Assembly: GCA_017561825.1 (NCBI GenBank)
Contig: JAFZBK010000002.1
Coordinates: forward strand, 1 to 64,000
Source of the DNA: Prevotella sp.
GTDB lineage: Bacteria > Bacteroidota > Bacteroidia > Bacteroidales > Bacteroidaceae
DNA length: 64,000 nucleotides
Direction: 5' to 3'
Below the pieces are notes generated by a model. That model was not told the DNA's origin, did no database searches, and worked only from the letters and a program-made list of their open reading frames with translations. Numbering within the stretch: position 1 is the first letter of the stretch; each line of letters starts with the position of its first letter. A program made the position numbers and the translations under genes. Of the stretch, positions 1,687-27,398 are shown in pieces.

Positions 1687-1720
1687 AATTGTCAATTATC
1701 AATTATCAATTGTCAATTAT
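1687..1720. repeat. heptamer tandem tract (AATTGTC/AATTATC)
   Basis: Five 7-bp units fill the gap between the stop codon of the surface lipoprotein gene (1717-1719) and the GTG start of the GH43 gene (1682). A 33-nt stretch is identical to the tract at 3637-3669. It leaves little room for a separate promoter, so the two genes are probably one transcript. Confidence 0.8.
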
Positions 1721-3621
1721 TCAAACACCAAATGTCCACCCTCTACCGTGAAGCGGAAGCGGAAGTTATCAGCCTCGATAGGACTGATACCCAGGTAGTC
1801 CTGATAGTAGGTGACACCATCATTACCCACCATGACACACCTCACATCAGCCGATGAGCCGTTGTTGGTTACCGATACGGTAACATAAGCATCATCCATG
1901 GCAGAGAGCCATGTGCCCCAGTCGGCCTGACCGCCACTGGTGGTACAAGTACCGTAGCTGTCGCCCCAACCGTAGTTATCAGCACGCAGCACAGCATATT
2001 CGCTGTTGTCGGCACGAGTGAGCACCACGATGAAGTTGTTCCAGTTGGCCGCGCCATTGGTGAAGTTCTTGAAGCGTGTGGTGTAGGTCTTACCTGCGGG
2101 AACGGTGATATCCTGAGAGTGGGCAGCCCACCAGCCAGTGGTATTGTCCTCCTCACCCAGTACTTCATCAAACTCCATGTGTCCACCTTCAATGGTGAAG
2201 CAGAACTGGAAGTCGTTCGGATCAATGGTATTGATGCCGTTATACTCCTGCGTGTAGGTCACACCGTCGTTACCAATCATCACCGCCTTGACATCCGCAG
2301 TACCGTCACCATTGTTCGTCACATAGGTGGTCACCTTGGCACCATCCATAGCAGAGAGCCATGCTGCCCAGTCGGCCTGACCGCCGCTCGTTGTACAAGC
2401 ATCATAGCCAGCGCCCCAGCCCCAGTTGTCGGCACGAAGCACAGCATACTCACTCATATCTGCCTTACGGAGCACAACCAGGAAGTTATTCCAGTTGGCA
2501 GCACCATTGGTGTAGTTGGTGAAGGTGCTGACGTAGGTCTCGCCCGGAGCCACCTTGAAGTCTTGAGAGAAGGCAGTCCACCATGCGGTAGAGTTGTCGG
2601 TAGCACCCACGCAGGTGTACATCTTATCAACTATCTCGAATGATGCGTAGGCAATCACAGGACTGCAGCTCTCGCCCTTGTAGGTCTTGTTATACACAGC
2701 CACCAAGGTCTTCTTACCCAATGAGTTCATGTCGGGAATGGCCTGGAAGGTAAGATCAGATGCCGGCACTTCCTTGGAGATACCTGTCTCGAACTGCACA
2801 GTAGCAGTGGTGTTGGCAAAGGCAGCAGCCAGTTCCGTACCCTGAAGAATCTTCTTGGGCACACCGTTCAGCGTCATCGACAGCGGCATCTTATCCTCTG
2901 CAGAGGTGAAGCCACCAATCGGTTCGATGGTAGAGCCGAGGAAGCTGACCAATGATCCCTCCACACCTACACGGAAGCAGAGGTCGATATCAGAACCTGT
3001 TGATGGGAACGAGCTGGTCTGCGTATAGGTCTTGGTCAGCGTTCCGTTGGTCATCTCGATATAGAGACCGCCGTTGGCACGATCCACCGTCAGCGTAATC
3101 TTACCGTTCATCTTCTGCACACTGGGATCCACATCGTCACCCTCGGAAGAGTTCTGGAAGTTTCCGCCCACCAGACTTCTGTCGATTTCCGTTCCCGTAG
3201 TATTCCACTCAGAGTTCTTGGTCGGGTCGTTATCGAAACGGATTACACCATACTCAGTGCCCACCTGACCGTTAAACTCGTTGATGGCAATATAGAAGTT
3301 CTTGTAATACTTGTTGTCAGGATTCACCGTGAGGTTAAACTGAGCCTGCCACTTCTGACCAGCAGGCACCACGTAGGTCTTACCTAACGTCCAGAAGCTG
3401 GCGGAGAGATCCTCTTTACCAATATTATATACGTCTTCCTCCAGACCTTCGATTCCTTCCTCGCCACCTTGACCCTTAGCAGCTGCGATAGAGTCAATCT
3501 TCGAGGACATCCAGTCGGGAGCACCTATGCCGTACAGGTCACCCCCCTCACAGCTCGTCAGAGCCATCAGACCGAGGGTAGCCGAACAGAAGACCGTTGT
3601 TATTTTATTGAGATATTTCAT
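1717..3621 (-). CDS. SusE/F-position surface glycan-binding lipoprotein, three repeated beta domains
   Basis: Outer-membrane lipoprotein of 634 residues in the SusE position of the PUL. I use the ATG at 3621, because the longer frame starts on a TTG inside the heptamer tract. The signal peptide ends in LMALTSC (lipid Cys24) followed by EGGD, acidic as often seen in surface-exposed Bacteroidetes lipoproteins. Domain A covers about residues 75-230. An Ig-like linker follows at about 235-330. Domains B (335-485) and C (490-634) are near duplicates, sharing GAANWNNF, SEYAVLRADN, TTSGGQADW and GNDGVTY. Trp-rich repeated beta domains suggest glycan binding. No enzyme motif is visible. It is flanked by heptamer tracts on both sides. 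Confidence 0.8.
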   Translation of the reverse strand: MKYLNKITTVFCSATLGLMALTSCEGGDLYGIGAPDWMSSKIDSIAAAKGQGGEEGIEGLEEDVYNIGKEDLSASFWTLGKTYVVPAGQKWQAQFNLTVNPDNKYYKNFYIAINEFNGQVGTEYGVIRFDNDPTKNSEWNTTGTEIDRSLVGGNFQNSSEGDDVDPSVQKMNGKITLTVDRANGGLYIEMTNGTLTKTYTQTSSFPSTGSDIDLCFRVGVEGSLVSFLGSTIEPIGGFTSAEDKMPLSMTLNGVPKKILQGTELAAAFANTTATVQFETGISKEVPASDLTFQAIPDMNSLGKKTLVAVYNKTYKGESCSPVIAYASFEIVDKMYTCVGATDNSTAWWTAFSQDFKVAPGETYVSTFTNYTNGAANWNNFLVVLRKADMSEYAVLRADNWGWGAGYDACTTSGGQADWAAWLSAMDGAKVTTYVTNNGDGTADVKAVMIGNDGVTYTQEYNGINTIDPNDFQFCFTIEGGHMEFDEVLGEEDNTTGWWAAHSQDITVPAGKTYTTRFKNFTNGAANWNNFIVVLTRADNSEYAVLRADNYGWGDSYGTCTTSGGQADWGTWLSAMDDAYVTVSVTNNGSSADVRCVMVGNDGVTYYQDYLGISPIEADNFRFRFTVEGGHLVFE

Positions 3622-3636
3622 AACTTTTCTAATTTT

Positions 3637-3669
3637 AATTGTCAATTATCAATTATCAATTGTCAATTC
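3637..3669. repeat. heptamer tandem tract (AATTGTC/AATTATC), identical copy
   Basis: Same 33-nt sequence as at 1687-1719. It lies between the SusD stop (3670-3672) and the start of the next gene (ATG 3621). Confidence 0.8.
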
Positions 3670-5457
3670 TTAAAGTCCTACCACAGGATGTACTGTCCAG
3701 CCTTTACCTGAGAAGTAATCCGCATTGCTGGTACTGAAGTTTGCCGAGTTACCAACAAGGTTGGGGTTGTCATTCAGTGTTCCCTGATAGATGGGAAGGA
3801 ACTCATGACCGTTGGTCCAGGAGTCGAAAGAGCTCTTGCTGCAAGAACTGTAGTCAACAGCATCCTTCGGCGTGAAGGTGATCACACCGTCCTCATAGTT
3901 AGCCTTGGTCCAGAAGTTTACAGCGGCATGCTGCTTCATCTGCTCCAGACGACCGCTGTCGTAGAAGAATCCCCAGCGGATCAGGTCGAAGCCACGTCCG
4001 TACTCACAGCCGAACTCCTTCGGACGCTCCACGTTGGCAATCTGCTCGAACAGCTTGTCCTTGGAGTTGAAGTCAGCGAGTTTCAGACTGGCCAAGCCGG
4101 CACGGTTACGCACCTGATTGATCCAGTCGATTGCCTGCTGGGTAGGACCGCTGATCTCGTTCTCGCACTCAGCGGCACGAAGCAGTACATCTGAGTAGCG
4201 CATCATGCGGAGGTTGATACCGCAGTGCAGACCCGTCACCACCTTGTCGTAGATACCTGTGCGCAGGTTCGTGAACTTGGCAATGGGCAGACCGCCGTAG
4301 TTGTTGTTGGTAACGACATAAGCATCACCCGACATGGGCAGTGTGTAGCACACATTACCATACTCGAAGCCATCCCATTCGGGCTCATAGGTACCAATGG
4401 TCCAGTAAAGACGGGGATCAAGACCGCCACTGGTAGTACGCTCAGCCTTAAACAGGTTGTAGAGCCAAGGAGAAGCAGAGAGGTCAGCCCATCCACCACA
4501 GTCGCCAGGACCGAAGTTACTCTCGATGGCATTACCCTGTGTAGCATTAGAGCTGGTATTCACAGGTGTCCACTCGTCGTCAGTACCCTGAGAACCATAG
4601 TCCAGGAACTGCACTTCGAAAAGACTCTCGTCGTTGTTCTCATACTTCGCACCTTCGCGGAAGTTGTCACCGTAGTTATCCATCAGCTTATAAGTGCCAT
4701 AGGTACCGCCGATGATTGCTTTCAACACGGTCAGGGCCTCACTGTACTTATGACGCATCATCAGGGCACGAGCATAGAAGCCTGCTGCTGCACCACTGGT
4801 GGCACGACCCTGTGCCCACTGTCCGCCGATGCTACGTGCTGGCAACAGTGACATGGCTGCCTGGAAATCCGATTCCACCTGATCCCATACCTCATCATAG
4901 GTGTTGTTGGCACCATAGAGACTGTTCAGGTCGGAATAGCTGTTATAGTCGGTAATCACTATCGGGGTCTGGAAATAACCAGCGAGGTTATAGTACGACA
5001 GACCGCGGATAAAGAGCGCCTGTCCTTTGATGCGCTTCATCTGCTCTGTCATCTCAACACCTTCTGCATCTGTGCGTGACAGGATGAAGTTACAAACATT
5101 GATGGTATAGTACCACTCACGCCAAGGCCACATACAGATCTCGTCGGTGGCAGGTACGTTCAGATCATCGAAAGGCAGATACCAAACCTGAGAGGAGTTC
5201 CATACCTCATCACCTCGGGTCAGGTCGATGGTATAGCCCACACGAGCGTATGACCCCTCCATACGGATGTGGTTATAAGCTGCAATGACACATTCCTCCA
5301 GATCTTCAGCCGTATTACCGAAGGTAGCGGTGGTCTGCTGGTTGGGGTTCGTCAGTTCCAGCTTGTCATCGCATGATGTGACGAAGAGGCAGGAGACGAG
5401 AAGTAAAAGGGATGAAAATACTCCTGCTACTACCTTATAATATTTATTAGTCTTCAT
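3670..5457 (-). CDS. SusD/RagB-family nutrient-binding outer-membrane lipoprotein
   Basis: Partner of the SusC-like transporter. It forms the lid that captures oligosaccharide at the cell surface. 595 residues from the ATG at 5457; the longer frame begins in the heptamer tract and is rejected. The signal peptide ends in FVTSC followed by DDKLELTNPNQ, the usual SusD N-terminus. N-terminal TPR-like helices include MTEQMKRIKGQALFIRGLSYYNLAGYF. The C-terminal SusD domain contains LRMMRYSDVLLRAAECENE and the late motif FGCEYGRGFDLIRWG. Length and order are typical. An earlier Cys (LLLLVSC) could also be read as a lipobox, but the second fits the family better. Confidence 0.95.
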   Translation of the reverse strand: MKTNKYYKVVAGVFSSLLLLVSCLFVTSCDDKLELTNPNQQTTATFGNTAEDLEECVIAAYNHIRMEGSYARVGYTIDLTRGDEVWNSSQVWYLPFDDLNVPATDEICMWPWREWYYTINVCNFILSRTDAEGVEMTEQMKRIKGQALFIRGLSYYNLAGYFQTPIVITDYNSYSDLNSLYGANNTYDEVWDQVESDFQAAMSLLPARSIGGQWAQGRATSGAAAGFYARALMMRHKYSEALTVLKAIIGGTYGTYKLMDNYGDNFREGAKYENNDESLFEVQFLDYGSQGTDDEWTPVNTSSNATQGNAIESNFGPGDCGGWADLSASPWLYNLFKAERTTSGGLDPRLYWTIGTYEPEWDGFEYGNVCYTLPMSGDAYVVTNNNYGGLPIAKFTNLRTGIYDKVVTGLHCGINLRMMRYSDVLLRAAECENEISGPTQQAIDWINQVRNRAGLASLKLADFNSKDKLFEQIANVERPKEFGCEYGRGFDLIRWGFFYDSGRLEQMKQHAAVNFWTKANYEDGVITFTPKDAVDYSSCSKSSFDSWTNGHEFLPIYQGTLNDNPNLVGNSANFSTSNADYFSGKGWTVHPVVGL

Positions 5458-5472
5458 AATTCTTTCTATTTT

Positions 5473-5504
5473 ATTATGCATTATGCATTATTAATTATGC
5501 ATTA
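5473..5504. repeat. heptamer tandem tract (ATTATGC)
   Basis: Units ATTATGC, ATTATGC, ATTATTA, ATTATGC and part of a fifth lie between the SusC stop and the SusD start. The SusC stop codon (5502-5504) is formed by the tract itself. Confidence 0.75.
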
Positions 5505-8500
5505 GAATGAGAACAGGATTCCACCCATGAACGTGCGAGCACTCGGGTATGAACAGTAGTTGTAGCCTGGGCTAAACACATTGGCTGCATAGTCCACATT
5601 ATAGCCCTTATAGCCAGTGAATGTGTAGAGGTTCTGTGCAGACACATAGAGACGTACGCCAGAAACAACACCCTTGAACACCTTGTCAGGGATATTGTAG
5701 CCCAACTCGATATTGGCAATCTTCCAGTAAGCTGCGTTCTGGATAAAACGCTCGCTGAACAGATCGTTCCAAGCCAGTGTGGCACTGTTGGCAGCGTAGG
5801 TGCGGGGAACGTCAGAAACATAGGTATCACCGTTCCAGCGGTTAGCATCCAGCATGCCCACTTCCTTATTGCTATAACCATAGCAAGAATTCAGCTGGTA
5901 GGTCATGAAGTCGAATACATGGTAACCTAATGCACCATAGGTAGAAAGACTCATGTCGAAGTTCTTGTACTCCAGATGTGCACTCAGACCGAAGTTCACT
6001 TTCGGCATTCCACTGCCTAAGACAGTCTGGTCGGCATCTGTGATGATACCATCGTTGTCGAGATCCTTATAGAGGCAGTCACCAACATTGGCACCCGACT
6101 GCAATGCTACGGCATTATGGGCATCCAGCTGCTCCTGTGTGCGGGCGATACCTTCATATACCCAGCCGTAGAACTGACCAATCTCCTTACCTACATAGGT
6201 ACGACTGTAAGAGCCTGTTGCGTAGTCATTGCCGAAACCGAGAGAGGTAACCTTGTTCTTCAGGGTGCTCAGGTTGGCGCTGATCTCATGCTTCAGGGCA
6301 TGGTCGTTGTTGCGGTATGTCAGTGAGAACTCCAGACCGCTGTTCTCCATCGATGCGGCATTCATCGTCACAGAGGTGTTGGATACACCTGCGTTGGTAG
6401 GAACGGGAACGCCATAGAGCAGATCGGTTGACTTATTCTTATACCACTCTGCTGTGAACTCGATGCGGTTGTTGAACAAAGCGAGGTCGATACCAGCATT
6501 GATGGTGGTCTTCTTCTCCCATGCCAGACTGGTATTGACGAAGGTAGAAACAGCTGAACCGGTTACGGGGTTGTTACCGAAGCTGTAGGTCATGTTGTTA
6601 CGCATCATCGTAGCCTGATAAGCATAGTCACCGATGTTCTCATTACCGAGCTCACCATAGCTGGCGCGAACCTTGAACATGTTCACGATGTTACGGTCGA
6701 TGGGGAAGAACTTCTCCCTATCGAAACGCCAACCAACAGATACAGAGGGGAAGGTACCCCAGCGGATATCCTTAGACAGGCGTGAGCTACCGTCACGACG
6801 TACAATGGCTGACAGCAGGTACTTTCCGTCATAATCATAGATCAGACGAGCAATGTATGATGTCAGTGCATGCTTATACTCATACGAGCTGGCATCTCTT
6901 GATGCTGCATTCTGAAGCTGCAGGAAGTAAGGCTCAGAGAAGTTCACACCCCAGGCATTCAGCAGGTGGGTGTTCTCTTCCTCGTAGGTCTGACCAACCA
7001 CCAGATTGATGTGGTGCAGATCCAGGGTGCCGTCGTAAGTCAGCGTATTCTCGATCAAAGCATCCGAATAAGTACGCTTGTTCTCTGTCAGCTTCTCATT
7101 ACTCTTGTCAAGATAGACACGGTTGCTCTGGATATAGGCAGGAATCCATGTCTTATCGAAAGCGTGTGTCTTACTGTAAGAAAGGTTCAACTTGTAGTTC
7201 AGCTTATGGTTCTTGCTGCCCAAGCCCAGCATCTTCAGCAGGTCAACATCTGCCGAGCCAGTACCCACCACGCGGTCAACGATGGTGTTACGTGTCAGCA
7301 TGTTGTTGATAAGCAACGGGTTGGAAGCTGAGATATCACCATGAACGGTATCGTAATACACACCATAGCCGAAGGCATCGTAGCCATAACTGCTGGCAGA
7401 ACCCACCTTATCATCGAGCACCCATGTGGAAGCATCGTAAGCCTTGATGGTAGGCTGCATGCGCAGTGTTCCGAAGAGCACGTTTGCCACGTCGCCATAC
7501 ATACCTTGTATATATAGGTTACCATTACCATCGGTGGGCACACCCATACCGTCCTGACTGCTGTGAGAATATACCAGACTGGTGCGGAACTTGATGAACT
7601 TGGTGTCCATCGTGTTGTTCACACGGGCAGTGAAGCGCTCGTAGTTCGGTCCTGCACCCTCTAAGGTACCCTTCTGGTTGAAGTAGTCAAGACCAATATT
7701 ATACGTATTGTTAGCACCGCCACCACTCAGGTTCACATTGTGGTTCTGACGGATACCGGTCTTGAACACCTCGTTGAACCAATCGGTATTCGTGTTGTCC
7801 TGGAACTTATAGCCGTTGGCCGTCTGACTGTAACCGCCGGGCAAAGGAGTACCAGAGTTGGCGCAAGCCTGTCCGAGGTAGTTACTGTACTGATCAGCAT
7901 TCATCACGTCATACACGCCGCCAGGAATCTGGTCAATACCAACGTAACCTTTATAATCCACCTTCAGCGGCTGATCCTTCAAACCATTCTTGGTAGTGAT
8001 GATCACCACACCGTTTGCAGCACGTGAACCGTAGATGGCACCTGCGGCAGCATCCTTCAGTACCTGAATGGTCTCGATGTCATTCGGAGAGAAGTCGCGA
8101 ATGGTTGTACCCATAGGCACACCATCGATAACATAAAGAGGAGCACTGCTTCCGAAGGATCCCACACCACGGATACGTACGGTAGGATCAGCACCTGGCT
8201 CACCGTTTGTCGTGATCTGTACACCAGCCACCTTACCTTCCAGCATCGTGGAGATGTTGGAGTTGGATGTCCGCTTCAGCTCATCAGCATTCACGATAGA
8301 GACAGAACCGGTCAGGTCGGCCTTCTTCTGGGTACCATAACCCACTACCACCACCTGATCCAGCACCAAGGCATCAGACTCAAGTTGAATCTGCCCAAGA
8401 ACCGCACGACCGTTCACGGCAATCTCACGATCCTTGAAGCCTACATAGCTCACCACGAGGGTAGCATTCGCCGGAGCATCTAATTGGAAGTTTCCGTCAA

Positions 8501-8702: not shown

Positions 8703-8758
8703 TGTAAATTGATTAAATTAGACTTTTTAGTTATTAATTAGGTATTGTCAATTTGCCA

Positions 8759-8813
8759 CAAAAGTAGTGGAATTGCCAACACGCAAGGTGGATAAAATGA
8801 TAATAAAGGTGGA
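8759..8813 (-). promoter_or_regulatory. PUL promoter with a direct-repeat operator candidate
   Basis: On the minus strand TACTTTTG (8766-8759) matches the Bacteroidetes -7 element TAnnTTTG, about 57 nt before the SusC ATG. Upstream are two direct repeats AAGGTGGA(T/C)AAAA (read on plus at 8785-8797 and 8806-8818), exactly 21 bp apart, that is two helical turns. The proximal copy overlaps the expected -33 position. This is the arrangement expected for an AraC-type dimer, and the gene just upstream encodes one. Confidence 0.6.
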
Positions 8814-8850
8814 CAAAAGTGTTTTAGTATCAGATTGTGCTCTTTTTGTG

Positions 8851-12880: not shown

Positions 12881-12914
12881 TTCTCACCTCTTGCTTCTTA
12901 CCTCTTGCTTCTAA
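12881..12914. repeat. heptamer tandem tract (CTCTTGC/TTCTTAC)
   Basis: 7-bp units CTCTTGC, TTCTTAC, CTCTTGC and TTCTAAA occupy the gap between the FucP-like stop (12911-12913) and the DUF445 start (12874). On the transcribed strand it reads purine-rich (AGAAGCA-type), like the 54207 tract. Confidence 0.7.
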
Positions 12915-17690: not shown

Positions 17691-17691
17691 T

Positions 17692-17876: not shown

Positions 17877-18110
17877 AAAGACCTACCGTAACACCTAACA
17901 AAGAGGTAACATAAGACCTAACATCACACCTAACATGTCAACTTAGAACAGTCGTAAGACGAAAAACTGACAACCTTGTTCTGGCGAATCTCATTCTTGC
18001 TTCTTGCCTCTTGCTTCTTGCCTCTAAAATGTTAGGTCTTATGTTAGGTGTTACGTTAGGTGTTACGTTAGGTGTTTGTTACCTCTTATGTTAGGTCTTT
18101 TGGCACCCTT
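17877..18110. repeat. Inverted arrays of ACCTAAC / GTTAGGT repeats
   Basis: The left array (17877-17937) has five or so ACCTAAC-like words. The right array (18028-18102) has the reverse words GTTAGGT, including 12-bp direct repeats GTTAGGTGTTAC. Long parts of the two arrays are reverse complements (for example TAAGACCTAACAT), and a heptamer tract lies between them. No coding potential. Same architecture as 58523-58977. Confidence 0.6.
17992..18027. repeat. heptamer tandem tract (TTCTTGC/CTCTTGC)
   Basis: Units ATTCTTGC, TTCTTGC, CTCTTGC, TTCTTGC and CTCTAAA between the two ACCTAAC/GTTAGGT arrays. The unit is nearly the same as at 12881-12914 and 54348-54395. Confidence 0.7.
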
Positions 18111-18221: not shown

Positions 18222-18617
18222 ATGAAGTATTATCGAACAGAAAAGCAAAGACTTTATTACGACAAAATGATATCACTTTATCGTGACAAGCACATGGGAA
18301 GACAGAGAATTGAGAAAATAATTCCTGTTTCAAATCACACTATTTCAGAATGGATTCGTACCTTTGTAGCCGAAAACCCGAGTTACAAGAGTGAGCGTAT
18401 GAAACAGGCTGAAGAAAGAAGGAAGAAGAAGGCGGCGTTGGAATCCGTCGATACTCCTGTCCCCGGTGATGTTGAGTCACTGAAGGCAGAGGTTGCCCGT
18501 CTTCGTAAGGCCCTTAAGGAGGAATCCATGCGTGCAGACCTTTACAATGAGATTATCAACGTTGCAGAGGAGCAGTTCAAGATTCCCATCCGAAAAAAAG
18601 CTGGCACCAGGCAGTAA
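18222..18617 (+). CDS. IS3-family transposase OrfA (HTH protein)
   Basis: 131 residues. N-terminal helix-turn-helix that binds the IS ends (KHMGRQRIEKIIPVSNHTISEWI), then a leucine-zipper-like coiled coil (VESLKAEVARLRKALKEES). Near the end the codons CGA AAA AAA G form an A7 slippery run (18593-18599). A -1 slip there continues in frame into orfB, giving the OrfAB transposase, while normal reading stops at 18617. Confidence 0.9.
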   Translation: MKYYRTEKQRLYYDKMISLYRDKHMGRQRIEKIIPVSNHTISEWIRTFVAENPSYKSERMKQAEERRKKKAALESVDTPVPGDVESLKAEVARLRKALKEESMRADLYNEIINVAEEQFKIPIRKKAGTRQ

Positions 18618-19591
18618 CGAACCTGCATGCACTGGATTCCCTGAGATATCCGATAGAGGGCCAGTGCAGACTGCTTGGTGTATCAAAGCAGGCTTATTTC
18701 CAAAGAGACGAGGATGTCCTGATGCGTAAAGTCGCACAAGAGGAATTCGCCCTGTCCTATGTCCGGGAGATCCGCAGGAAGGATCCAGGCCTTGGCGGTG
18801 AGAAACTCTGGATGATGTACAAGCGCGACTTCACAGGTAACAAGCCCATGGGGCGTGACCGCTTCGGGGCTCTTATGGACAGGTACGGGCTGAAGGTCAG
18901 GAAGCGTGTGCGCAAGCCGCGTACGACAGATTCCACACACGGGCTTCCCGTATATCCGAACCTCATCAGGGATTTTATCCCGACAGCCCCCAACCAGCTG
19001 TGGGTAAGCGATATTACCTATATACCCATATGGCCGGGCGACGGCAGCTATTGCTTCTGCTACCTGTCTATGATGCTGGATGCGTATACGGAGGAGATCG
19101 TCGGCTGGAGCGTAGGTCCGACACTCGATACGGAATACCCGATACGCGCCCTGCAGATGGCTCTGGAGCGCATCAAGGACATCCCCAAGGAGCAGCTGGC
19201 GCTTATACATCACTCAGACCGCGGTGTCCAGTATGCCAGCAAGCGCTATGTGGAGCTGCTGGCGGAACACGGCATCGGCATCAGCATGACAGAGGACGGG
19301 AATCCCAAGGAGAACGCCCAGGCAGAACGGCTCAACAATACGATGAAGAACGAGCTGCTCAAGGACAAGCACTTCACGACACTTGCAGAGGTGATTGCGG
19401 CAATTATCGCGGCCGTCAGCTTCTACAACGAGGAGCGCATGCACATGAGCATCGACATGATGACTCCGAAGGAAGCCGCTGGATGTACGGGAGAGCTGAA
19501 GAAGCACTGGACAAGCTACAGGGAGCAGCACATCAGGGCAAGGCAACAAAACAGGGGTGAGATGAGGACAAATGGCGTTTCTCTTGCATAA
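18599..19591 (+). CDS. IS3-family transposase OrfB (DDE integrase, made by -1 frameshift)
   Basis: Catalytic half of the transposase. In the -1 frame it continues from orfA as SWHQAVTNLHALDSLRYPIE, then LLGVSKQAYFQRDEDVLMRK. The first in-frame ATG is only at 18722, so the frameshift supplies the N-terminal part. The HTH_21 region (GLGGEKLWMMYKRDF) is followed by an rve core with the DDE triad: Asp in WVSDITYIPIW, Asp in LIHHSDRGVQYAS and Glu in GNPKENAQAERLNN. The frame is intact to the stop at 19591, so the element could still be active. Codon use is more GC-rich than in the flanking intergenic DNA. Confidence 0.93.
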   Translation, partial: SWHQAVTNLHALDSLRYPIEGQCRLLGVSKQAYFQRDEDVLMRKVAQEEFALSYVREIRRKDPGLGGEKLWMMYKRDFTGNKPMGRDRFGALMDRYGLKVRKRVRKPRTTDSTHGLPVYPNLIRDFIPTAPNQLWVSDITYIPIWPGDGSYCFCYLSMMLDAYTEEIVGWSVGPTLDTEYPIRALQMALERIKDIPKEQLALIHHSDRGVQYASKRYVELLAEHGIGISMTEDGNPKENAQAERLNNTMKNELLKDKHFTTLAEVIAAIIAAVSFYNEERMHMSIDMMTPKEAAGCTGELKKHWTSYREQHIRARQQNRGEMRTNGVSLA

Positions 19592-20650: not shown

Positions 20651-20685
20651 ATCGAGTGCGAATATACAACTTTCGGATGAAAACA

Positions 20686-20718
20686 CAAAAAAATCGGATG
20701 GAAAAATTTCCATCCGAT
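20686..20718 (-). terminator. Rho-independent terminator of the small-protein unit
   Basis: On the minus strand ATCGGATGGAAA, a two-base loop, TTTCCATCCGAT and then seven T. The perfect 12-bp stem and U-run lie about 50 nt after the stop of the 32-residue gene. It also separates that unit from the nuclease gene. Confidence 0.85.
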
Positions 20719-20766
20719 CTTGATAGTATCTTTAGAATAATCTAACTGTTCAAATGAAACGAAGCC

Positions 20767-20865
20767 TTATGGCAAGATGTACTCGTTTGACTTCGACACC
20801 AGCACGTTGGCCTCTTTCCAGCTATTCTTGATAGCGTTCACAATTTTCTGCATTGTCTTTTTCAT
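20767..20865 (-). CDS. 32-residue small protein, unknown
   Basis: Short gene of 33 codons, starting MKKTMQKIVNA and ending SKSNEYILP. The first 20 residues can form a basic amphipathic helix with one Trp. The tail is polar. AAAGGAAAAG lies just before the ATG. A full promoter (21083-21113) and a strong terminator (20686-20718) bracket it, so it is a free-standing transcription unit rather than chance. No signal peptide, no Cys. I do not recognise the family; a small regulatory, membrane-active or leader-type peptide are all possible. A 17-codon micro-ORF precedes it on the same transcript. Confidence 0.6.
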   Translation of the reverse strand: MKKTMQKIVNAIKNSWKEANVLVSKSNEYILP

Positions 20866-20884
20866 TTTTCTTTTCCTTTGAATT

Positions 20885-20938
20885 TTATTCGACCTTTTCT
20901 CGCCATGGCAAAGCAGAAACAAGTTTCGCTTTGCTCAT
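20885..20938 (-). CDS. 17-residue upstream micro-ORF
   Basis: ATG at 20938 reads MSKAKLVSAL then PWREKVE and stops 19 nt before the next ATG. The DNA also forms a hairpin: GCAAAGC-AGAAAC / GTTTC-GCTTTGC (about 20909-20934), so the coding signal may be a by-product of RNA structure. It is in the leader of the 32-residue gene and could act in attenuation. Confidence 0.3.
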   Translation of the reverse strand: MSKAKLVSALPWREKVE

Positions 20939-21082
20939 CTGGCTTATCGAAAACGTTCTTTATAACATCAATCAATTAAACATCAAATACATCAACAATC
21001 TTTTTACCTAACTAACTACCTATTCTATTAGCAGTTACTATTTGTTATCCTGTATCGCAAAGGATCTCTCCGTTTGCGAGTG

Positions 21083-21113
21083 CAAAGGTACGACAATCCC
21101 CTGAGCCCCACAA
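21083..21113 (-). promoter_or_regulatory. Promoter of the small-protein unit
   Basis: On the minus strand TTG (21113-21111), 20 nt, then TACCTTTG (21090-21083): a full consensus match. It predicts a leader of about 210 nt before the 32-residue gene. Confidence 0.75.
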
Positions 21114-21120
21114 CAAATAG

Positions 21121-21152
21121 CGGCATTTCTCGTTGGAAATGCCGTTTTTTTT
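21121..21152 (+). terminator. Terminator-like hairpin
   Basis: CGGCATTTC, six-base loop, GAAATGCCG, then eight T on the plus strand. No plus-strand gene precedes it. On the minus strand it lies 28 bp after the stop of the MG2-like gene and could end that transcript, but the U-run is on the other side. Confidence 0.55.
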
Positions 21153-21179
21153 GACCTTCATCAATGCGCTTGACGCAAA

Positions 21180-23960
21180 TCAATCATGGGGGAAGACACC
21201 TGCTGTGCTGACGCGGATTCGGGTGTTGTGACCGTTGTTGTAGAAGGTGGCTTTGTAGTGTCCGTCAGCATCGAGATTCGCATTGGGATTCCAATAGAGC
21301 GTACGACGATGATCTGCCTGCGGCAAACGGGCATTACTATAGTCGGGATGATAGAATTCATCAGGGAAATACATGCCATGAAGGATGATACGACGGTCGC
21401 GATAGGTATAGCGTTTGGCATCATCAGGCACCAAGACGAAGTCGAGCGTGACATCAGCCACGGAAGTCGACACTTCCTGCGGCTTGTCCTCATTGCGCAG
21501 CTCGAAGTCGGTAAACAACCGGATATTCTTCTGACGGTTCAGATGGATATTCCTATAGACGGAAGTACCTGTACGGAAAGCTGTTGTCTCGATGGTGGCA
21601 TCAGGTACGAAGGTACGGTAGAATGTATAGGGTGCCTGCAGATTGTCGCTCATGCGTGCCTCAACATTGAAGGTGCGGGAACTGTTGCAGTTTCCCAAGA
21701 GGAGCATGCTGACCTGCACGGGGAAACGACGGAAGTTCAGCTTACCGAACGATAAGCCGTAGTCGGTGGCGAGGTTATACAGCTCGTAGGTATCATAGAC
21801 ATAGGCCGGCTTGGAGTAGTCGATGGAATGACGACCATGGCGGCGGTGTGCCTTCACCTCCACTTCCTGCAGCTGCGCATCGAACTTGGAGATTCGCGTA
21901 GTATCAACCAGCAGACCCGCATCGCCGCCAAAGGCGTTCTTCTCATCTGGAAGATGACACTGGTAGTAGTCGTATTTGCGGGCAAAGATAGGATAGAACA
22001 GGTCGCGCTTGACATAGAAATCAGGCCACTCATCCTCGTTGATCATTCCCTCTAACTCCCATTTCTGGTGTCTTTTCTCATTGATATCCTTCTTATGGGC
22101 CGAGAGGAACAGGATTCCATCGCCATAGAACGGCGGTACATTGAATGAAAAACGACCGCCGTTGGTGGTTTCCATGTTGATACTGGCGATATCCTGACCC
22201 AGCACCAACTCACCATTCAACACCACCTCATAGCGCAAGGCACCGTTGTCATCACCGAAGTAAGGATCGAAAGCACTCTGGGGGTTGGATGACTGCTCGG
22301 GGGCACTAACCTCCTCAACCTGAGAATTTCCTTCGATGCTTGCTGCTTCTTTCAGTTCCTCCTCTTCAATCAGACTGCGCAGTCCCATCGAATCAGCAGT
22401 CTCCTCATCCTGGTCGCAATAGCCGAAGATACCTGTCAGCCAATAGTCCACCTCGCACTCACGGATATCATCAAACGGGATGGTCTTATAGACAGCACCC
22501 TCCACGGTCATGGTCTGCTCAGGCTGGTAACGTGGCGGAACGGGAGCAGTCATGTCATGATAGTCGTAACGCCGCCATCCTTGCACCATCATCAGCAGAT
22601 CGAGTGCCTGACGGTGCTCCTCATCATCTTTCTCAAAGTAATAGTTGGGATAGGCGATGAAGCCCTGAAGGTCGCTGCTGAGAAGGAGATCAGTCATGAT
22701 ATTCCCAGTATCATAGGTGGGATCATCCGTTGAGCCATCACGCACACTGATGGAGATATGCTTTGCTTCTGCAGGAGCCTGGAAATCCAATGTGATGGGG
22801 GCAAACGACTGGTACTCATCTTCTATCCCGCTAACCGTGATGGGCTGCATGTTGTAGTCGTGGTGGTTGACAAAGAACAGGCGGTCAGCCAAGGGTTGTC
22901 CGTACTCATCAATGACCAGCAAATCGCAAACGCCAGTGGGAATGTTTGACGTGTCTATCCTTACTACCCCGCTGCCGTTCAGTTTCTGGAAATGCTTCAG
23001 GATGCCACGACAGAGCACTGCCAATCCGTATTCATGACCATCATCCATTCCTTTGAGCGTGACATGTGCAGTGATGGCGTTGTCTTGCACTTCCACATGA
23101 AGGGCACAGCCATCCTGTAATATTTTCCCCAGACCGAAAGAATAATCCTTGTCGTGATAGTTAAAGCGCGCCTTCATCCCATCATCCTCAGGCACATCCA
23201 CGGTAAACACACCGCGGCCCTGATGCGAGGTGCTGATGGGTATCCTCCTTTTTCCTACATCGACCGTTCCTTGAATATCCACCCACTCCCCTTCTTCGGT
23301 CAATGCTTCGAAGGCTACGTTACAACGGGTACCGGCAATCAGATTACCGCCCTCGGGGTAGAAGTTCACCTTGAGCTGTTCCTTCAACTCCTTTTCGTTG
23401 CGGGTTTTCGGACGACTAACAATGTATTTCTGCAGGTAGTCGCCAGTTGAATCAGGACGCTCATATACAGGAACCACACGACTGTATATCGTACCGTACT
23501 GACGGAAGAAATCATGGGCCATCCTGCGACTGTAGAACTGCTCACGATCCTTACGGTTATAAGGGTGCTCAGTAACACAGAAGTTCAGCATCCACTTGGT
23601 GTAGGCACGCAGCTCGTAATAGCCGGAATAGAGCGAATCCCTCAAGGCGAAATTACCGTCACCATGACCATCCGCCGAAACAATCAGACGCTGGCGCTCC
23701 ACAACCAGTCCGTCGGGCGAAACCAGTTCGACATAGACTATACGACTCATGTCGGTATAACTCAGATCATCAGCCCGCACCACATAACTCTTGTACCAGA
23801 TGGTATCCCCTTTATAATAGCAGGTGTTGTCGAGATGAAGATACACTTTCTCCTGCACGGGCGCATCTTTCAGCACACTTGCAATACTGTCGAGCTTGCT
23901 CTGCGACATAGCAGTCAACCCCACAAGAATCATCAGGAAGGTGAAAACAACTCTCTTCAT
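21180..23960 (-). CDS. Large exported MG2/alpha-2-macroglobulin-like protein
   Basis: Periplasmic or outer-membrane protein of 926 residues from ATG 23960 (MKRVVFTFLMILVGLTAMSQ signal peptide). The N-terminal MG2-like region contains VQEKVYLHLDNTCYYKGDTIWYKSY (here quoted in part: YLHLDN, YKGDTIWYK), typical of Bacteroidetes proteins sometimes annotated as TonB-dependent receptor plug domain proteins. Further Ig-like beta domains follow, and a late plug-like part with FDAQLQEVEVKAHRR. The C-terminal motif LYWNPNANLDADGHYKATFYN is common in the family. Exact role unknown; it is probably an envelope scaffold. The longer frame through the promoter region is rejected. Confidence 0.75.
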   Translation of the reverse strand: MKRVVFTFLMILVGLTAMSQSKLDSIASVLKDAPVQEKVYLHLDNTCYYKGDTIWYKSYVVRADDLSYTDMSRIVYVELVSPDGLVVERQRLIVSADGHGDGNFALRDSLYSGYYELRAYTKWMLNFCVTEHPYNRKDREQFYSRRMAHDFFRQYGTIYSRVVPVYERPDSTGDYLQKYIVSRPKTRNEKELKEQLKVNFYPEGGNLIAGTRCNVAFEALTEEGEWVDIQGTVDVGKRRIPISTSHQGRGVFTVDVPEDDGMKARFNYHDKDYSFGLGKILQDGCALHVEVQDNAITAHVTLKGMDDGHEYGLAVLCRGILKHFQKLNGSGVVRIDTSNIPTGVCDLLVIDEYGQPLADRLFFVNHHDYNMQPITVSGIEDEYQSFAPITLDFQAPAEAKHISISVRDGSTDDPTYDTGNIMTDLLLSSDLQGFIAYPNYYFEKDDEEHRQALDLLMMVQGWRRYDYHDMTAPVPPRYQPEQTMTVEGAVYKTIPFDDIRECEVDYWLTGIFGYCDQDEETADSMGLRSLIEEEELKEAASIEGNSQVEEVSAPEQSSNPQSAFDPYFGDDNGALRYEVVLNGELVLGQDIASINMETTNGGRFSFNVPPFYGDGILFLSAHKKDINEKRHQKWELEGMINEDEWPDFYVKRDLFYPIFARKYDYYQCHLPDEKNAFGGDAGLLVDTTRISKFDAQLQEVEVKAHRRHGRHSIDYSKPAYVYDTYELYNLATDYGLSFGKLNFRRFPVQVSMLLLGNCNSSRTFNVEARMSDNLQAPYTFYRTFVPDATIETTAFRTGTSVYRNIHLNRQKNIRLFTDFELRNEDKPQEVSTSVADVTLDFVLVPDDAKRYTYRDRRIILHGMYFPDEFYHPDYSNARLPQADHRRTLYWNPNANLDADGHYKATFYNNGHNTRIRVSTAGVFPHD

Positions 23961-23966
23961 CTTTTG

Positions 23967-23974
23967 CAAAGGTA
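23967..23974 (-). promoter_or_regulatory. -7 element directly before the MG2-like gene
   Basis: TACCTTTG on the minus strand ends six bases before the ATG at 23960. This would give a transcript with almost no leader. No clear -33 TTG. Confidence 0.4.
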
Positions 23975-24047
23975 CATCTTTTTTACATTCTTCCTGCTGC
24001 TTTACACAAAAAAACACAAAACAATCTGCGTTTTCCCATTTTTTTTG

Positions 24048-24055
24048 TACATTTG
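24048..24055 (+). promoter_or_regulatory. -7 element directly before aguA
   Basis: TACATTTG ends eight bases before the ATG at 24064, again implying a very short or absent leader. No clear -33 TTG. Confidence 0.4.
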
Positions 24056-24063
24056 TCATCGAA

Positions 24064-25158
24064 ATGAAGACATTACTTCCTGCGGAATGGGAACCGCAAT
24101 GGGGCGTTCAGCTGACGTGGCCACATGAGGGAACAGACTGGAAGCCGTATCTGAAGGAGATTACGGATACCTATCTGGAGATGGCTCGTGCCATTACGCA
24201 ATACGAGATGCTGCTGGTGGTGGCACCCGATATCTCATTGGTACGCCAACAACTCATTGATGGGAATGTTGACATCAGTCGTGTGGTGTTCCACCAGTGC
24301 CCTACTAATGATACGTGGGCAAGGGATCATGGGTTCATTACGTTGAAGATGAGAGATGAAAGAGGAGAGATGAGAGATGAAAAAGGAGAGATGAGAGATG
24401 AAAGAGGAGAGATGAGAGATGAAAGAGAAGAGATGGTGATGCTGGATTTCTGTTTCAACGGCTGGGGCAAGAAGTTCAAGGCTGAGAAAGACAATGCCAT
24501 CAACAAAAGCTTGTTTCCTTCTCTCATCTCTCATCTCTCATCTCTCATCTACGAAAGTTGTCTCGACTTCGTCCTCGAGGGTGGAAGCATTGAGAGTGAC
24601 GGGAAAGGTACAATCTTCACCACCTCATCCTGTCTGCTGGCTCCAAACCGTAACCAGCCGCTTACTCGTGAGCAAATAGAAGAGGAACTGAAAAGACGAC
24701 TCCATGCGGAGCGAATCGTATGGATAGATCACGGTCATCTGACCGGTGATGACACTGACGGACATATCGACACATTAGCGCGCATTGCCCCTAACGACAC
24801 CTTAATATATATAGGTTGTGACGATGAGGGGGATGAGCAATTTGTTGAGCTGAAGGCAATGGAGGATCAACTCGCAACCTTCCGTACCCGCCAAGGGAAG
24901 CCCTACCGTCTGCTCAGACTGCCCCTACCCGACCCGATTTACGATGATGGGGAGCGGTTACCGGCTACGTATGCGAACTACCTCATCATCAACGGGGCTG
25001 TACTGGTTCCCACTTACGGTCAGGCCGACAAGGATGCGGAGGCCATCCGCATCATCCAACAGGCTTTTCCCGACAGAAAGATGATTCCCATCGACAGCAG
25101 AACGATCATCCGGCAACATGGTTCCATCCACTGCTGTACAATGCAGTTTCCACTCTAA
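24064..25158 (+). CDS. aguA: Agmatine deiminase with two heptamer-repeat insertions
   Basis: Converts agmatine to N-carbamoylputrescine and ammonia in putrescine synthesis. 364 residues from ATG 24064 (MKTLLPAEWEPQWG, the family N-terminus). Guanidino-modifying fold residues are TWARDHGF (about 85-92), LEGGSIESDGKGT, the catalytic His in DTDGHIDT, and the catalytic Cys in GSIHCCTMQ near the C-terminus. Two loops are enlarged by simple repeats: residues about 96-123 are four copies of MRDERGE-like heptapeptides, and about 152-163 read LISHLSSLIY. Both are translated from heptamer tracts that are reverse complements of each other. Active-site motifs are intact, so the enzyme is probably functional. 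aguB follows after 30 bp. Confidence 0.95.
   Translation: MKTLLPAEWEPQWGVQLTWPHEGTDWKPYLKEITDTYLEMARAITQYEMLLVVAPDISLVRQQLIDGNVDISRVVFHQCPTNDTWARDHGFITLKMRDERGEMRDEKGEMRDERGEMRDEREEMVMLDFCFNGWGKKFKAEKDNAINKSLFPSLISHLSSLIYESCLDFVLEGGSIESDGKGTIFTTSSCLLAPNRNQPLTREQIEEELKRRLHAERIVWIDHGHLTGDDTDGHIDTLARIAPNDTLIYIGCDDEGDEQFVELKAMEDQLATFRTRQGKPYRLLRLPLPDPIYDDGERLPATYANYLIINGAVLVPTYGQADKDAEAIRIIQQAFPDRKMIPIDSRTIIRQHGSIHCCTMQFPL
24349..24432. repeat. Heptamer tract inside aguA: four 21-bp units
   Basis: Each 21-bp unit (ATGAGAGATGAAAGAGGAGAG type) is three 7-mers and so seven codons, which keeps the frame open. Copies differ at single bases only. Confidence 0.9.
24519..24550. repeat. Second heptamer tract inside aguA, inverted relative to the first
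   Basis: Four CTCTCAT units plus a partial one, reverse complement of the GAGATGA units at 24349-24432. The two could pair into a stem of more than 25 bp in the mRNA with a loop of about 90 nt. Confidence 0.9.
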
Positions 25159-25188
25159 AAAGAATTGATATAATTAATAACATAGGAT

Positions 25189-26076
25189 ATGCGTGAACTG
25201 ATAATAGGATTCCTGCAACAACATAACGTTGCGGACAAAAAGGACAACATGAAGCGGTTGGCTGAGGGGATTACCGACCTCGCCAAACGGGGTGCCGAAC
25301 TGATCGTGTTGCAGGAGCTGCATAACGGACTGTACTTCTGTCAGACTGAAGAGGTAGGGAACTTCGATCAGGCGGAAACGATTCCTGGTCCTTCAACAGC
25401 GTTCTATGGGGAACTCGCCAAGCAGTTGGGCGTGGTGATTGTTACCTCCTTGTTCGAGAAACGGGCCTCAGGACTCTATCATAATACGGCCGTGGTACTG
25501 GAGAAAGACGGCTCGATAGCGGGGACTTACCGAAAGATGCATATTCCTGACGACCCTGCCTATTATGAGAAGTTCTATTTCACGCCTGGTGACTTAGGCT
25601 TCCATCCCATCCAGACATCCGTAGGAAAACTCGGCGTGCTGGTATGCTGGGACCAGTGGTTCCCTGAGGCCGCACGACTCATGGCGCTGCAAGGAGCGGA
25701 GATCCTGATATACCCCACTGCCATTGGCTATGCAGCCAACGATGATGAGGCGGAACAGCAACGTCAGCGGGAGGCGTGGACAACCGTGATGCGTGGGCAT
25801 GCAGTGGCTAACGGACTGCCAGTGATTGCCGTTAACCGCGTGGGCTTTGAGGAGGATCCCTCACAGCAGACGGATGGCATCCAGTTCTGGGGCAGCAGCT
25901 TCGTAGCGGGTCCGCAAGGTGAGATCATCTATCGCGCTTCTGACAACGAGGAAGAGAGCATCATCGTGGAAATCGATATGGAACATAATGAACTGGTACG
26001 TCGCTGGTGGCCCTTCTTGCGCGACCGCCGTGTGGATGCTTACGAAGATATCCTGAAACGGTTTGTGGATGAATAA
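25189..26076 (+). CDS. aguB: N-carbamoylputrescine amidase
   Basis: Nitrilase-superfamily enzyme of 295 residues that hydrolyses N-carbamoylputrescine to putrescine, CO2 and ammonia, completing the pathway begun by aguA. The Glu-Lys-Cys triad is visible: Glu in LIVLQELHNG (about 43), Lys in TYRKMHIPDD, and Cys in GVLVCWDQWFPEAAR. IPTAIGYA-like segments (ILIYPTAIGYAAND) and the AVNRVGFEED strand are typical of this subfamily. It lies 30 bp after aguA on the same strand. The stop is only three bases from the convergent permease stop. Confidence 0.96.
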   Translation: MRELIIGFLQQHNVADKKDNMKRLAEGITDLAKRGAELIVLQELHNGLYFCQTEEVGNFDQAETIPGPSTAFYGELAKQLGVVIVTSLFEKRASGLYHNTAVVLEKDGSIAGTYRKMHIPDDPAYYEKFYFTPGDLGFHPIQTSVGKLGVLVCWDQWFPEAARLMALQGAEILIYPTAIGYAANDDEAEQQRQREAWTTVMRGHAVANGLPVIAVNRVGFEEDPSQQTDGIQFWGSSFVAGPQGEIIYRASDNEEESIIVEIDMEHNELVRRWWPFLRDRRVDAYEDILKRFVDE

Positions 26077-26079
26077 ACA

Positions 26080-27351
26080 TTACTTTCTGTTACCTTGATC
26101 CAAACGAACCAATGAGGTGACCCAGAAGGTAATGGCACTTAACACGACAACAACGATAAAGAACGTACGGTAGCCCCATGACAGCTGGAGGGTTCCCGCA
26201 ATCATGGTGGGCAGCATCATCGACAAAGCCATGAAGGATTTGGCAATGGTGCGGTGGATAATCCTTGTGGAACGCCTGCTGAACACGTTAAGACAATACA
26301 GGTAGAACACGATGCCGAAGCCGTAGCCGAACTGCTCGATGAACACACAAAGACTGATCAACGAAAGACTCTCGGGCAGCACATAACTTAAGAAGACATA
26401 CAACAGATCAGGAACCGTCATCGCACATGCCATCCACCATTTCCAATGATTGGCGCCATCACGATGGATGGCCTTGCTGCCTAATACGCCTCCTAACGAC
26501 AAGCCGATGATGCCAACGGTACCCATCACCAAACCGTATTCCTGTGGAGCTAAGCCCAATCCGCCATTCTGCATGGGGTCGAGCAGGAACAACAACGACA
26601 TCTTTCCCATCAGCGCCTCTGGTAAACGATAGAGCAAGAGGAAGAGAAGGATAACGGTAATAGAGGGCTTTTGCATAAACGACTTCCACCCGCTCTTCAC
26701 CTCGTCCCAAATATCTTGGAAATGCACCTGCTGACGGGGTGTCGGACCCTCGTCTGACTGCAAATAAAGATGGTAGAAGAACAGTAACAGGAAGAGTCCG
26801 GCCACAATGTAGAACACCAGACTCCAGGAATAGCGGATATTGTTCCTGTAGAACACCTGCATGTTTCCTGCCAGCATCACCAACACACCTTGTCCTAATG
26901 CCATCGCCACCTTCTGTGACAACTGACGGATCAGCTCTGCCCGATGAACGGTCTTGCTAACCTTCTGTCTATAGAGATTATCCGCCGCCTCGTTATGAGT
27001 GGCACTGGCAAAAGCAATGAGCCAGAACAGGAACAAGGTGCCCTGAAGCCAGAACTGCGCATGGATGGTGAAGGCCACACCGCCGAAGCCGGCACCTAAC
27101 AGCAACTGCGACAAGAGAATCCACCAACGACGGGAATGGGTCTTGAGAACATATGATTTCCACAGGGGCTTGATGACCCACGGCAGATAGAACCATGCCA
27201 CATAGAACGTGATAGCCGCATTGCTCAATCCCAACTGCTTGTAGAGGATGACAGCAAGCGCCATCAACGCCACCTGTGACAACCCCTTTGCGAAATACAA
27301 AGAAGGCAGCCAGCGCGGCACACTTCGTTCTATGGTCGTCTCATTCCTCAA
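26080..27351 (-). CDS. AmpG-like MFS permease, second copy
   Basis: Inner-membrane MFS protein of 423 residues with about 12 TM helices, paralogous to the next gene. Shared landmarks are RWLPSLYFAKGLSQVALM at the N-terminus, FYLPWVIKPLWKSYV, FASATHNEAADN, VILLFLLLYRLPEA, and FIEQFGYGFG. Related families import anhydromuropeptides (AmpG) or acetyl-CoA. The start is TTG 27351, the first start after an in-frame stop and the only one that keeps the conserved N-terminus. It lies after a heptamer tract and behind the other permease and the GT2-DUF4922-SpoIID gene, probably in one operon. It lacks the Asp pattern ATHDIAADG of its sister (HNEAADN instead), so specificity may differ. Confidence 0.85.
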   Translation of the reverse strand: MRNETTIERSVPRWLPSLYFAKGLSQVALMALAVILYKQLGLSNAAITFYVAWFYLPWVIKPLWKSYVLKTHSRRWWILLSQLLLGAGFGGVAFTIHAQFWLQGTLFLFWLIAFASATHNEAADNLYRQKVSKTVHRAELIRQLSQKVAMALGQGVLVMLAGNMQVFYRNNIRYSWSLVFYIVAGLFLLLFFYHLYLQSDEGPTPRQQVHFQDIWDEVKSGWKSFMQKPSITVILLFLLLYRLPEALMGKMSLLFLLDPMQNGGLGLAPQEYGLVMGTVGIIGLSLGGVLGSKAIHRDGANHWKWWMACAMTVPDLLYVFLSYVLPESLSLISLCVFIEQFGYGFGIVFYLYCLNVFSRRSTRIIHRTIAKSFMALSMMLPTMIAGTLQLSWGYRTFFIVVVVLSAITFWVTSLVRLDQGNRK

Positions 27352-27370
27352 TCTTTAATCTAAATTTTAA

Positions 27371-27398
27371 ATGGTCAATGGTCAATGGTCAATGGTCA
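27371..27398. repeat. heptamer tandem tract (ATGGTCA x4)
   Basis: Four perfect ATGGTCA units between the two AmpG-like genes. The tract includes the stop codon of the upstream permease (27396-27398). Confidence 0.85.

What the first reader, a model, noticed from the sequence alone, without database searches (positions are those of the whole stretch)
1687..27398. Heptanucleotide tandem tracts fill stop-to-start gaps in operons
Five intergenic gaps inside operons (1687-1720, 3637-3669, 5473-5504, 12881-12914, 27371-27398) are almost wholly made of 7-bp tandem units. The unit differs (AATTGTC, ATTATGC, CTCTTGC, ATGGTCA), but the period does not, and in four of the five (all but 3637-3669) the tract includes or forms the upstream stop codon. 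Two of them share an identical 33-nt sequence although the flanking genes are unrelated. A fixed 7-bp period with free sequence suggests one copying mechanism or selection on length rather than on sequence. Heptanucleotide STRR repeats are known in cyanobacteria; I know of no described counterpart with this placement in Bacteroidales.
Basis: partly seen in the sequence, partly recalled or inferred. Interest (0 to 1): 0.82.

Follow-up and report, generated by a model that had tools for sequence, protein, structure and literature searches.

The report
Seven-base repeats left by mobile elements
Short seven-base repeats that fill gaps between genes in this bacterium look like leftover arms of a hairpin-shaped, probably mobile element that encodes a small helix-bundle protein; the same kind of protein gene sits between such arms in bacteria of many phyla, which offers one origin for a repeat class noticed for decades.

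Summary
Observation confirmed. All five tracts exist; period 7 dominates the window and a 464-kb sample of its genome; tracts cluster at stop codons. Place is kept while the unit is free: related species carry different units in the same gap.

Following the repeats led to a protein. ORFs of the 23S_rRNA_IVP family (PF05635; fold like Avd of diversity-generating retroelements) are flanked by inverted, mutually complementary arrays of mostly 7- or 8-bp units: 53 of 59 loci of this genus, 68 of 78 loci from many phyla, 16 of 16 plasmid loci (cross-locus background 8, 5 and 17%). Two control genes: 1 of 30 each. The elements lie mostly in sense between co-directional genes, left arm at the upstream stop, right arm near the next start. 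All six IVP ORFs of this genome above the family cut-off have heptamer arms, of six families; 28 of 53 solo tracts share a 12-mer with them. Upstream of recA elements are present, reduced or absent among species, and their tree conflicts with the species' relationship.

Best reading: the window tracts are ORF-less relics of such elements. Mobility and RNA processing are inferred.

The parts
1687..1720 (-). solo array, unit TTGAYAA in sense (AATTRTC on +), contains the TAA stop of gene 1717-3621
   Evidence: same unit family as the arms of the IVP element at G000:C13 (L226)
3637..3669 (-). solo array, same unit family, 34 nt identical to the first; 1 nt after the stop of gene 3670-5481 (SusD-like)
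5473..5504 (-). solo array, unit TGCATAA in sense (ATTATGC on +), forms the TAA stop of the SusC-like gene
   Evidence: ATTATGC arms flank an IVP ORF in another species (L221)
12881..12914 (-). array of alternating heptamers (AGAAGCA/AGAGGTR in sense), contains the TAG stop of an MFS gene; ends in GAGAAT like the inner boundary of palindromic elements
   Evidence: tract identical in relative G110
17994..18025 (.). heptamer array (GCAAGAR) between inverted 12-bp arrays; empty counterpart of a site that carries core1 in L087
24347..24435 (+). in-frame array (AGATGAR/AGAGGAG) inside the agmatine-deiminase-family ORF 24064-25158
   Evidence: relative G110 has unit GGAGTGA at this place; GAGATGA arms flank the IVP at G000:C49 (L375)
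24520..24550 (+). in-frame array (TCTCTCA), inverted with respect to 24347
   Evidence: relative G110 has CTCCCTC here
27370..27400 (-). solo array, unit TTGACCA in sense (AATGGTC on +), contains the TGA stop of gene 27396-28682
   Evidence: not matched to an IVP arm of this genome
54208..54294 (+). left arm of an ORF-less palindromic element between convergent genes (AGAGGTG, AGAAGTT, AGAAGCA units)
54295..54351 (.). short core of that palindrome, related to cores in L009 and in G110/G195
   Evidence: 71% over 131 columns with the L009 copy
54352..54396 (-). right, inverted arm of the same palindrome, reaching the stop of gene 54393-56108

Best explanation
The tracts are solo arms, or arms of ORF-less palindromes, of a family of small elements built as: tandem array of 7- or 8-bp units, often an inner GAGAATA, an ORF for a ~120-aa four-helix-bundle IVP protein (PF05635) or a short core, TATTCTC, and the array again, inverted. 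They sit mostly in sense between co-directional genes, the left arm starting at the stop codon of the upstream gene (often supplying stops), the right arm ending near the next start. In RNA the two arrays pair into one long stem around the ORF. Since every unit pairs with every other, arms can gain, lose or exchange units and still pair, so sequence is free while period and complementarity stay. Shown: the association of IVP ORFs with inverted arrays, their complementarity, sense orientation, stop/start placement, presence/absence and non-vertical turnover at one site. Inferred: that the element moves; that RNase III cuts the stem, as in 23S rRNA intervening sequences; that the window tracts derive from such elements by loss of the ORF and of one arm. 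Not explained: why 7 or 8; a unit length not divisible by three spreads a stop triplet over all three frames, which would let an arm end any reading frame it meets.
For: IVP flanks are mutually complementary in 53/59 genus, 68/78 phyla and 16/16 plasmid loci at score >=18 (cross-locus pairs 8.1, 5.0, 16.9%), 44/59 and 60/78 without ORF overlap (4.7, 4.6%); controls aguA 1/30, recA 1/30. Arms are arrays: best lag 7 in 50/68, 8 in 14/68. Co-directional with both neighbours 32/35 and 32/37. Stem around the ORF, z -8.0. Six of six above-cut-off IVPs of this genome have heptamer arms of six families; 28/53 solo tracts share a 12-mer with them. recA site: full, ORF-less, short-array and empty states among 30 loci; G110 v G195 dS 0.16 at recA and at the upstream gene but near saturation for the IVP, which is nearest to that of the more distant G006. 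IVP counts correlate with AATTNTC counts over 299 genomes, rho 0.39.
Against: 25 of 53 solo tracts share no 10-mer with own IVP arms, and among 200 draws six random IVP loci of other species of the genus reached 28 too (mean 8.2). 6 of 40 genomes without an IVP hit have five or more AATTNTC matches, e.g. G018 and G101 (G101 is 68% complete). Period 8 is commoner than 7 in the genus arms (28 v 17 of 53). Gap 3621/3670 has no array but the same length in G110, so the tract there is not a simple net insertion. Three of 14 annotated plasmid IVPs lie antisense to both neighbours. Recombination between species at a site would mimic mobility. No movement, cleavage or expression was observed; the correlations have no phylogenetic control.
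Confidence: 0.6

Rival explanations
1. Replication slippage with a preferred step of 7 (idea of Mrazek 2007, as cited in PMC4679880 and PMC4692102) grows arrays anywhere; purifying selection leaves those at gene ends, in gaps and in frame in loops. IVP elements merely tolerate arrays.
For: Placement fits a filter: near stops the stop-rich strand is in sense (24 v 4, 13 equal) and 24 of 32 arrays inside ORFs have no stop in sense. Units within arrays differ by point changes.
Against: Does not predict inverted complementary arrays on both sides of one protein family in distant phyla, joint change of both arms, or a vocabulary shared among loci.
Confidence: 0.2
2. The palindromic arrays are host terminators, insulators or RNA-stability stems; IVP genes are cargo that needs them.
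For: Arms start at stops and form strong stems; some ORF-less palindromes lie between convergent genes.
Against: Elements lie inside operons, presence varies among species at one site, and solo arrays without a partner arm are common.
Confidence: 0.12
3. A RAYT-like Y1 transposase or the interspersed hairpin core1 makes or spreads the arrays.
For: A RAYT-like protein is found in 165 of 299 genomes and more often where AATTNTC matches are many (>=10: 83/165 v 26/134). All 12 core1 copies of this genome with <=3 mismatches lie in heptamer runs by reading, 10 of 12 by the tract caller.
Against: No core1 in the 17 RAYT loci examined; core1 in 21 of 299 genomes; a filled/empty pair shows the array without core1. 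No phylogenetic control.
Confidence: 0.04

Closest known systems
23S rRNA intervening sequences (IVS) with S23/IVP ORF, as in Coxiella (PMC4990558, abstract and introduction read)
   Same: Same protein family (PF05635), short element, complementary ends that form a stem, described there as parasitic and cut by RNase III
   Different: Here between protein genes, not in rRNA; stems are tandem 7/8-bp arrays with free sequence; many ORF-less copies; cleavage not tested
Heptanucleotide repeats of bacteria: TAACTGA (PMC4679880, abstract and sections 3 and 10 read) and GGGAATC (PMC4692102, abstract, introduction, discussion read); cyanobacterial STRRs (listing and mentions only)
   Same: Same period, intergenic placement near gene ends, unit-number variation, mixed heptamers
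   Different: Those papers discuss slippage, regulation or quadruplexes in the sections read; none links the arrays to IVP ORFs or to inverted arms
Avd protein of diversity-generating retroelements (4dwl, 8ube; passages of PMC10053308)
   Same: Same four-helix fold, TM 0.78-0.84
   Different: About 10% identity, Foldseek E about 0.01; no reverse transcriptase or template repeat was looked for or seen beside these IVP ORFs
MITE, REP/BIME and IS200/IS605-type elements (recalled)
   Same: Short palindromic dispersed copies, few coding ones
   Different: Arms keep period and complementarity, not sequence; the encoded protein is no known transposase

Membership tests
23S_rRNA_IVP / S23 protein family (PF05635), for the ORF | Profile match over the curated cut-off | tested here: met
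   Six ORFs of this genome over the cut-off; 2rld and 2gsc by profile and fold. No such ORF lies in the window among the listed hits.
23S rRNA intervening sequence (IVS) | Location inside a 23S or 16S rRNA gene | tested here: not met
   Elements lie between protein genes
23S rRNA intervening sequence (IVS) | Complementary ends that form a terminal stem | tested here: met
23S rRNA intervening sequence (IVS) | RNase III excision | not testable with these tools
   Needs RNA end mapping
Diversity-generating retroelement | Reverse transcriptase plus template/variable repeats next to Avd | not tested
   Only the fold was compared
Transposable element / MITE | Dispersed copies and empty sites | tested here: met
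   Dispersed palindromes in G000, G110, G195; presence/absence upstream of recA
Transposable element / MITE | Target-site duplication or observed movement | tested here: inconclusive
   No duplication seen by reading, but variable arrays reach the junctions; movement cannot be watched here
Bacterial heptanucleotide SSR / STRR | Tandem 7-mers in excess of other periods, mostly intergenic | tested here: met

The most novel reading that the evidence does not exclude
IVP proteins drive a widespread class of RNA-level mobile elements that home, in sense, to stop/start junctions of operons in bacteria and some archaea. An Avd-like protein binds the paired tandem arms and recruits a reverse transcriptase in trans; the 7/8-bp arrays are made and exchanged in that copying step. 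Most heptanucleotide repeats of bacteria, the cyanobacterial ones included, are footprints of these elements.
Probability: 0.25. Interest if true: 0.95.

Novelty: new variant of a known kind. Interest (0 to 1): 0.85.

Why it matters
Two old orphans, the excess of heptanucleotide repeats in bacteria and the S23/IVP protein family of unknown function, sit together in one architecture in distant phyla. That gives the repeats a testable origin and the protein a genomic context: an element with a paired-array stem between operon genes, on some cyanobacterial plasmids between CRISPR-associated genes. It predicts mRNA ends at these stems. Nine searches of the held library listed no paper that links the two, judged from titles and starts of abstracts of the listed rows; subscription journals and preprints are largely outside it.

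Tried and rejected
Local seeding of each array from the gene end: the vocabulary is shared across loci, so this alone fails. Core1 as maker of arrays: the array exists without it. RAYT as mobiliser of core1: no core1 in 17 RAYT loci; the co-occurrence is uncorrected and stays a lead. Rfam: with a lax E-value only sub-gathering hits, 11 of 13 to microRNA models and 2 to a plastid 3'UTR model, on the palindromes of L009, taken as chance. Strict period 7: rejected. Stops in all frames as the full reason for the period: only a moderate left/right bias (2.23 v 1.43 and 2.29 v 1.62 frames; shuffled left arms 1.85 and 2.10). The first arm test cut arms that overlap the ORF end in Nostoc plasmids (9 of 16); repeated with overlap for the three sets, which also raised the background; both are given. 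RAYT flanks gave complementary flanks in 7 of 32 loci, which include repeat fetches of the same genes.

Dropped: 1 of 60 and 2 of 80 loci for short flanks; arms over 130 nt (2 of 44, 4 of 60); two tracts that are themselves IVP arms (55 to 53). Genes were called by a coding-score script or as longest ORFs.
Full report
1. Observation. The five tracts are real. In the window exact runs of 12 or more lag matches occur at periods 7 (8), 14 (2), 21 (5) and 12 (1) and at no other period from 4 to 30. In 464 kb of the same genome (window plus 20 stretches fixed in advance) runs of 11 or more number 38 at period 7 against 0.3 expected, 25 at 14, 29 at 21, then 8 at 22 and 6 at 9. With mismatches allowed there are 55 period-7 tracts, none in one shuffled set. 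The genome (G000, 2.98 Mb, 69 contigs) is unnamed; a record titled Prevotella sp. (L295) matches 100% the IVP protein of a same-genus genome (L244 from G060), so the genus is most likely Prevotella in the GTDB sense.

2. Placement. In stretches from seven genomes of the genus, 41 of 67 tracts in co-directional gaps start within 10 nt of the upstream stop, 24 of them overlapping it. In gaps of 150 bp or more 8 of 20 are stop-anchored (1.5 expected) and 1 start-anchored (1.5 expected). Near stops the sense strand has stops in more frames than the antisense in 24 tracts, in fewer in 4, equal in 13; far from stops there is no such bias (5 v 9, 12 equal). Of 32 tracts inside called ORFs 24 have no stop in sense. 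Hosts of in-frame arrays include LpxB, CobB-like, IspD, DegT-type aminotransferase, Dus and saccharopine dehydrogenase families and the agmatine-deiminase-family ORF of the window.

3. Same place, other unit. Behind that aguA-like gene 23 species with the same downstream gene were compared; in seven an array straddles or abuts the gene end, each with another unit, an eighth has one in mid-gap, fifteen have none. In relative G110 the gap 1640/1717 keeps TTTGAATAAT but has TGCATAA units for TTGAYAA; 3621/3670 has no array but the same length; 12874/12911 is identical. In three-species synteny gap 15937/15988 of L009 holds ATTATGC, AACTGTC or AACTATG, and one place inside lpxB holds AGAGATG, CGCACCCC (period 8) or GGAGGAA. 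In one inverted pair both arms differ together: AAGCAAG with CTTGCTT in two species, GTGAGAA with TTCTCAC in the third.

4. Elements. Inverted pairs enclose short cores and recur across G000, G110 and G195. One pair upstream of recA encloses an ORF of family 23S_rRNA_IVP. Starting from IVP ORFs gave the main result. Sets: 60 loci of the genus, 80 from a scan of named genomes, 16 plasmid loci. Complementarity of 5' and 3' flanks at score 18 or more: 44 of 59 and 60 of 78 (cross-locus pairs 4.7 and 4.6%); with overlap of the ORF end allowed 53 of 59, 68 of 78, 16 of 16 (8.1, 5.0, 16.9%). Controls: aguA 1 of 30, recA 1 of 30, RAYT 7 of 32. Over the 60 phyla loci the lag-7 match is 0.41 and lag-14 0.39 against 0.28 shuffled. 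Best lag per locus: 7 in 50 of 68, 13 of 16 and 17 of 53; 8 in 14, 2 and 28. Examples: GACTCGG in Geobacter, GTAGGCA in Pirellulales, GGGACTW in Planctomycetales, TTAGGAT in Clostridia; AGTAGGG, GGGAACA, GGTGACA and AAAGCTA in Nostoc, Anabaena and Pseudanabaena plasmids, two of them between cas6 and cas4.

5. Context. Where both neighbours were called the ORF is co-directional with both in 32 of 35 (genus) and 32 of 37 (phyla) armed loci; the left arm begins about at the upstream stop and the right arm ends near the next start. Of 14 annotated plasmid loci 11 are co-directional with both neighbours and 3 antisense to both. Left arms have stops in more frames than right arms. The recA-upstream element folds with its arms as one long stem around the ORF, z -8.0.

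6. Link to the window. The six IVP ORFs of this genome above the cut-off have inverted heptamer arms of families GGAGAGT, GGAGTAA, AATTRTC, CATTGAA/CTTTGAA, GAGATGA and ATTAAGA/ATGAAGA; two weaker matches in longer ORFs have none. 28 of 53 solo tracts share a 12-mer with these arms; six random phyla loci give mean 0.4 (max 5), six random other genus loci 8.2 (max 28), unit-permuted own arms 6.6 (max 20). Not matched are chiefly AGAAGCA/AGAGGTG, ATTATGC and AATTYTC families and the AATGGTC tract of the window; AAGCAAG, GGTGAGA and ATTATGC arrays do flank IVP ORFs in other species (L232, L267, L288, L221).

7. Turnover. Upstream of recA, 30 loci of the genus were read; 25 have the same upstream dehydrogenase. 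Seven carry an IVP ORF there (six by tblastn, L280 by profile), one an ORF-less palindrome (L293), three short arrays of 8- or 9-bp units by eye (L282, L284, L286), others plain gaps from 29 bp up, three longer gaps were not resolved. G110 and G195 differ at recA and at the dehydrogenase by dS 0.16 but their IVP ORFs there by near-saturated synonymous change (pS 0.74, pN 0.24), so the protein is constrained but the copies are not vertical orthologues. G110's copy is nearest to that of G006, not G195; six of seven recA-site IVPs form one clade (support 0.92), and the three pepD-site IVPs another. G110 has no IVP before pepD, but its upstream gene differs there, so that is no clean empty site. 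This looks like site-faithful exchange; recombination between species would look the same.

8. Protein. The AlphaFold model of L295's IVP (22 sequences) has mean pLDDT 96; best PDB matches are 2gsc and 2rld, next Avd (8ube, 4dwl; E about 0.01, TM 0.78-0.84). That PF05635 resembles Avd is in print (PMC10053308, passages).

9. Genus-wide counts. AATTNTC triplets occur in 188 of 299 genomes, up to 234 matches; IVP hits in 259, over the cut-off in 236. Spearman 0.39; five or more AATTNTC matches in 49% of genomes with and 15% without an IVP hit. RAYT-like proteins correlate too. No phylogenetic correction was made.

10. Known and new. Heptanucleotide excess, IVS with S23 ORF in 23S rRNA, and the Avd likeness are known. 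Not met in the nine searches: IVP ORFs between protein genes with inverted heptamer arrays, and heptamer tracts as their remains. It works like a sense, stem-bounded intervening sequence; it is not an rRNA IVS, since that location was tested and not met.

Noticed in passing
L079-L090 (12 places in G000), L091-L120 in relatives: A ~70-bp imperfect hairpin (core1, AACTTTTGGAGCAGCGAG...AAGTCAACGWAGTTAA) sits at a unit boundary inside heptamer runs with the same unit family on both sides and different families at different loci; in three species (L105-L107) it follows the stop of the same gene without heptamers.
   Followed up: partly
window 17877-17936 and 18029-18099; L087: Inverted 12-bp arrays (AAGACCTAACAT) enclose a heptamer array; L087 is the same arrangement with core1 inserted without target duplication.
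   Followed up: partly
L146 958-1992 and other RAYT loci L149-L180: RAYT-like Y1 protein in 165 of 299 genus genomes; in G121, G314 and G050 it is flanked by short repeats (TTCGTTCAGTTCTCGGCAC...).
   Followed up: partly
L135-L137 (G185): Octamer arrays (AATTGTCN, AGGAGTAA) are as common as heptamers (11 v 7 tracts in 60 kb).
   Followed up: partly
L388, L389, L395: IVP ORFs with heptamer or octamer arms lie between cas6 and cas4 on two cyanobacterial plasmids and between cas10 and cmr3 on a third.
   Followed up: partly
L009 8257-8358 and 15050-15147: Two further dispersed ~100-bp sequences with many copies in G110 and G195.
   Followed up: no
L217, L225, L207 (G110): IVP ORFs with long arms of mixed palindromic units around GTTCAA instead of plain heptamers.
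   Followed up: no
window 18222-19591: IS3-family transposase ORFs next to the nested arrays.
   Followed up: no
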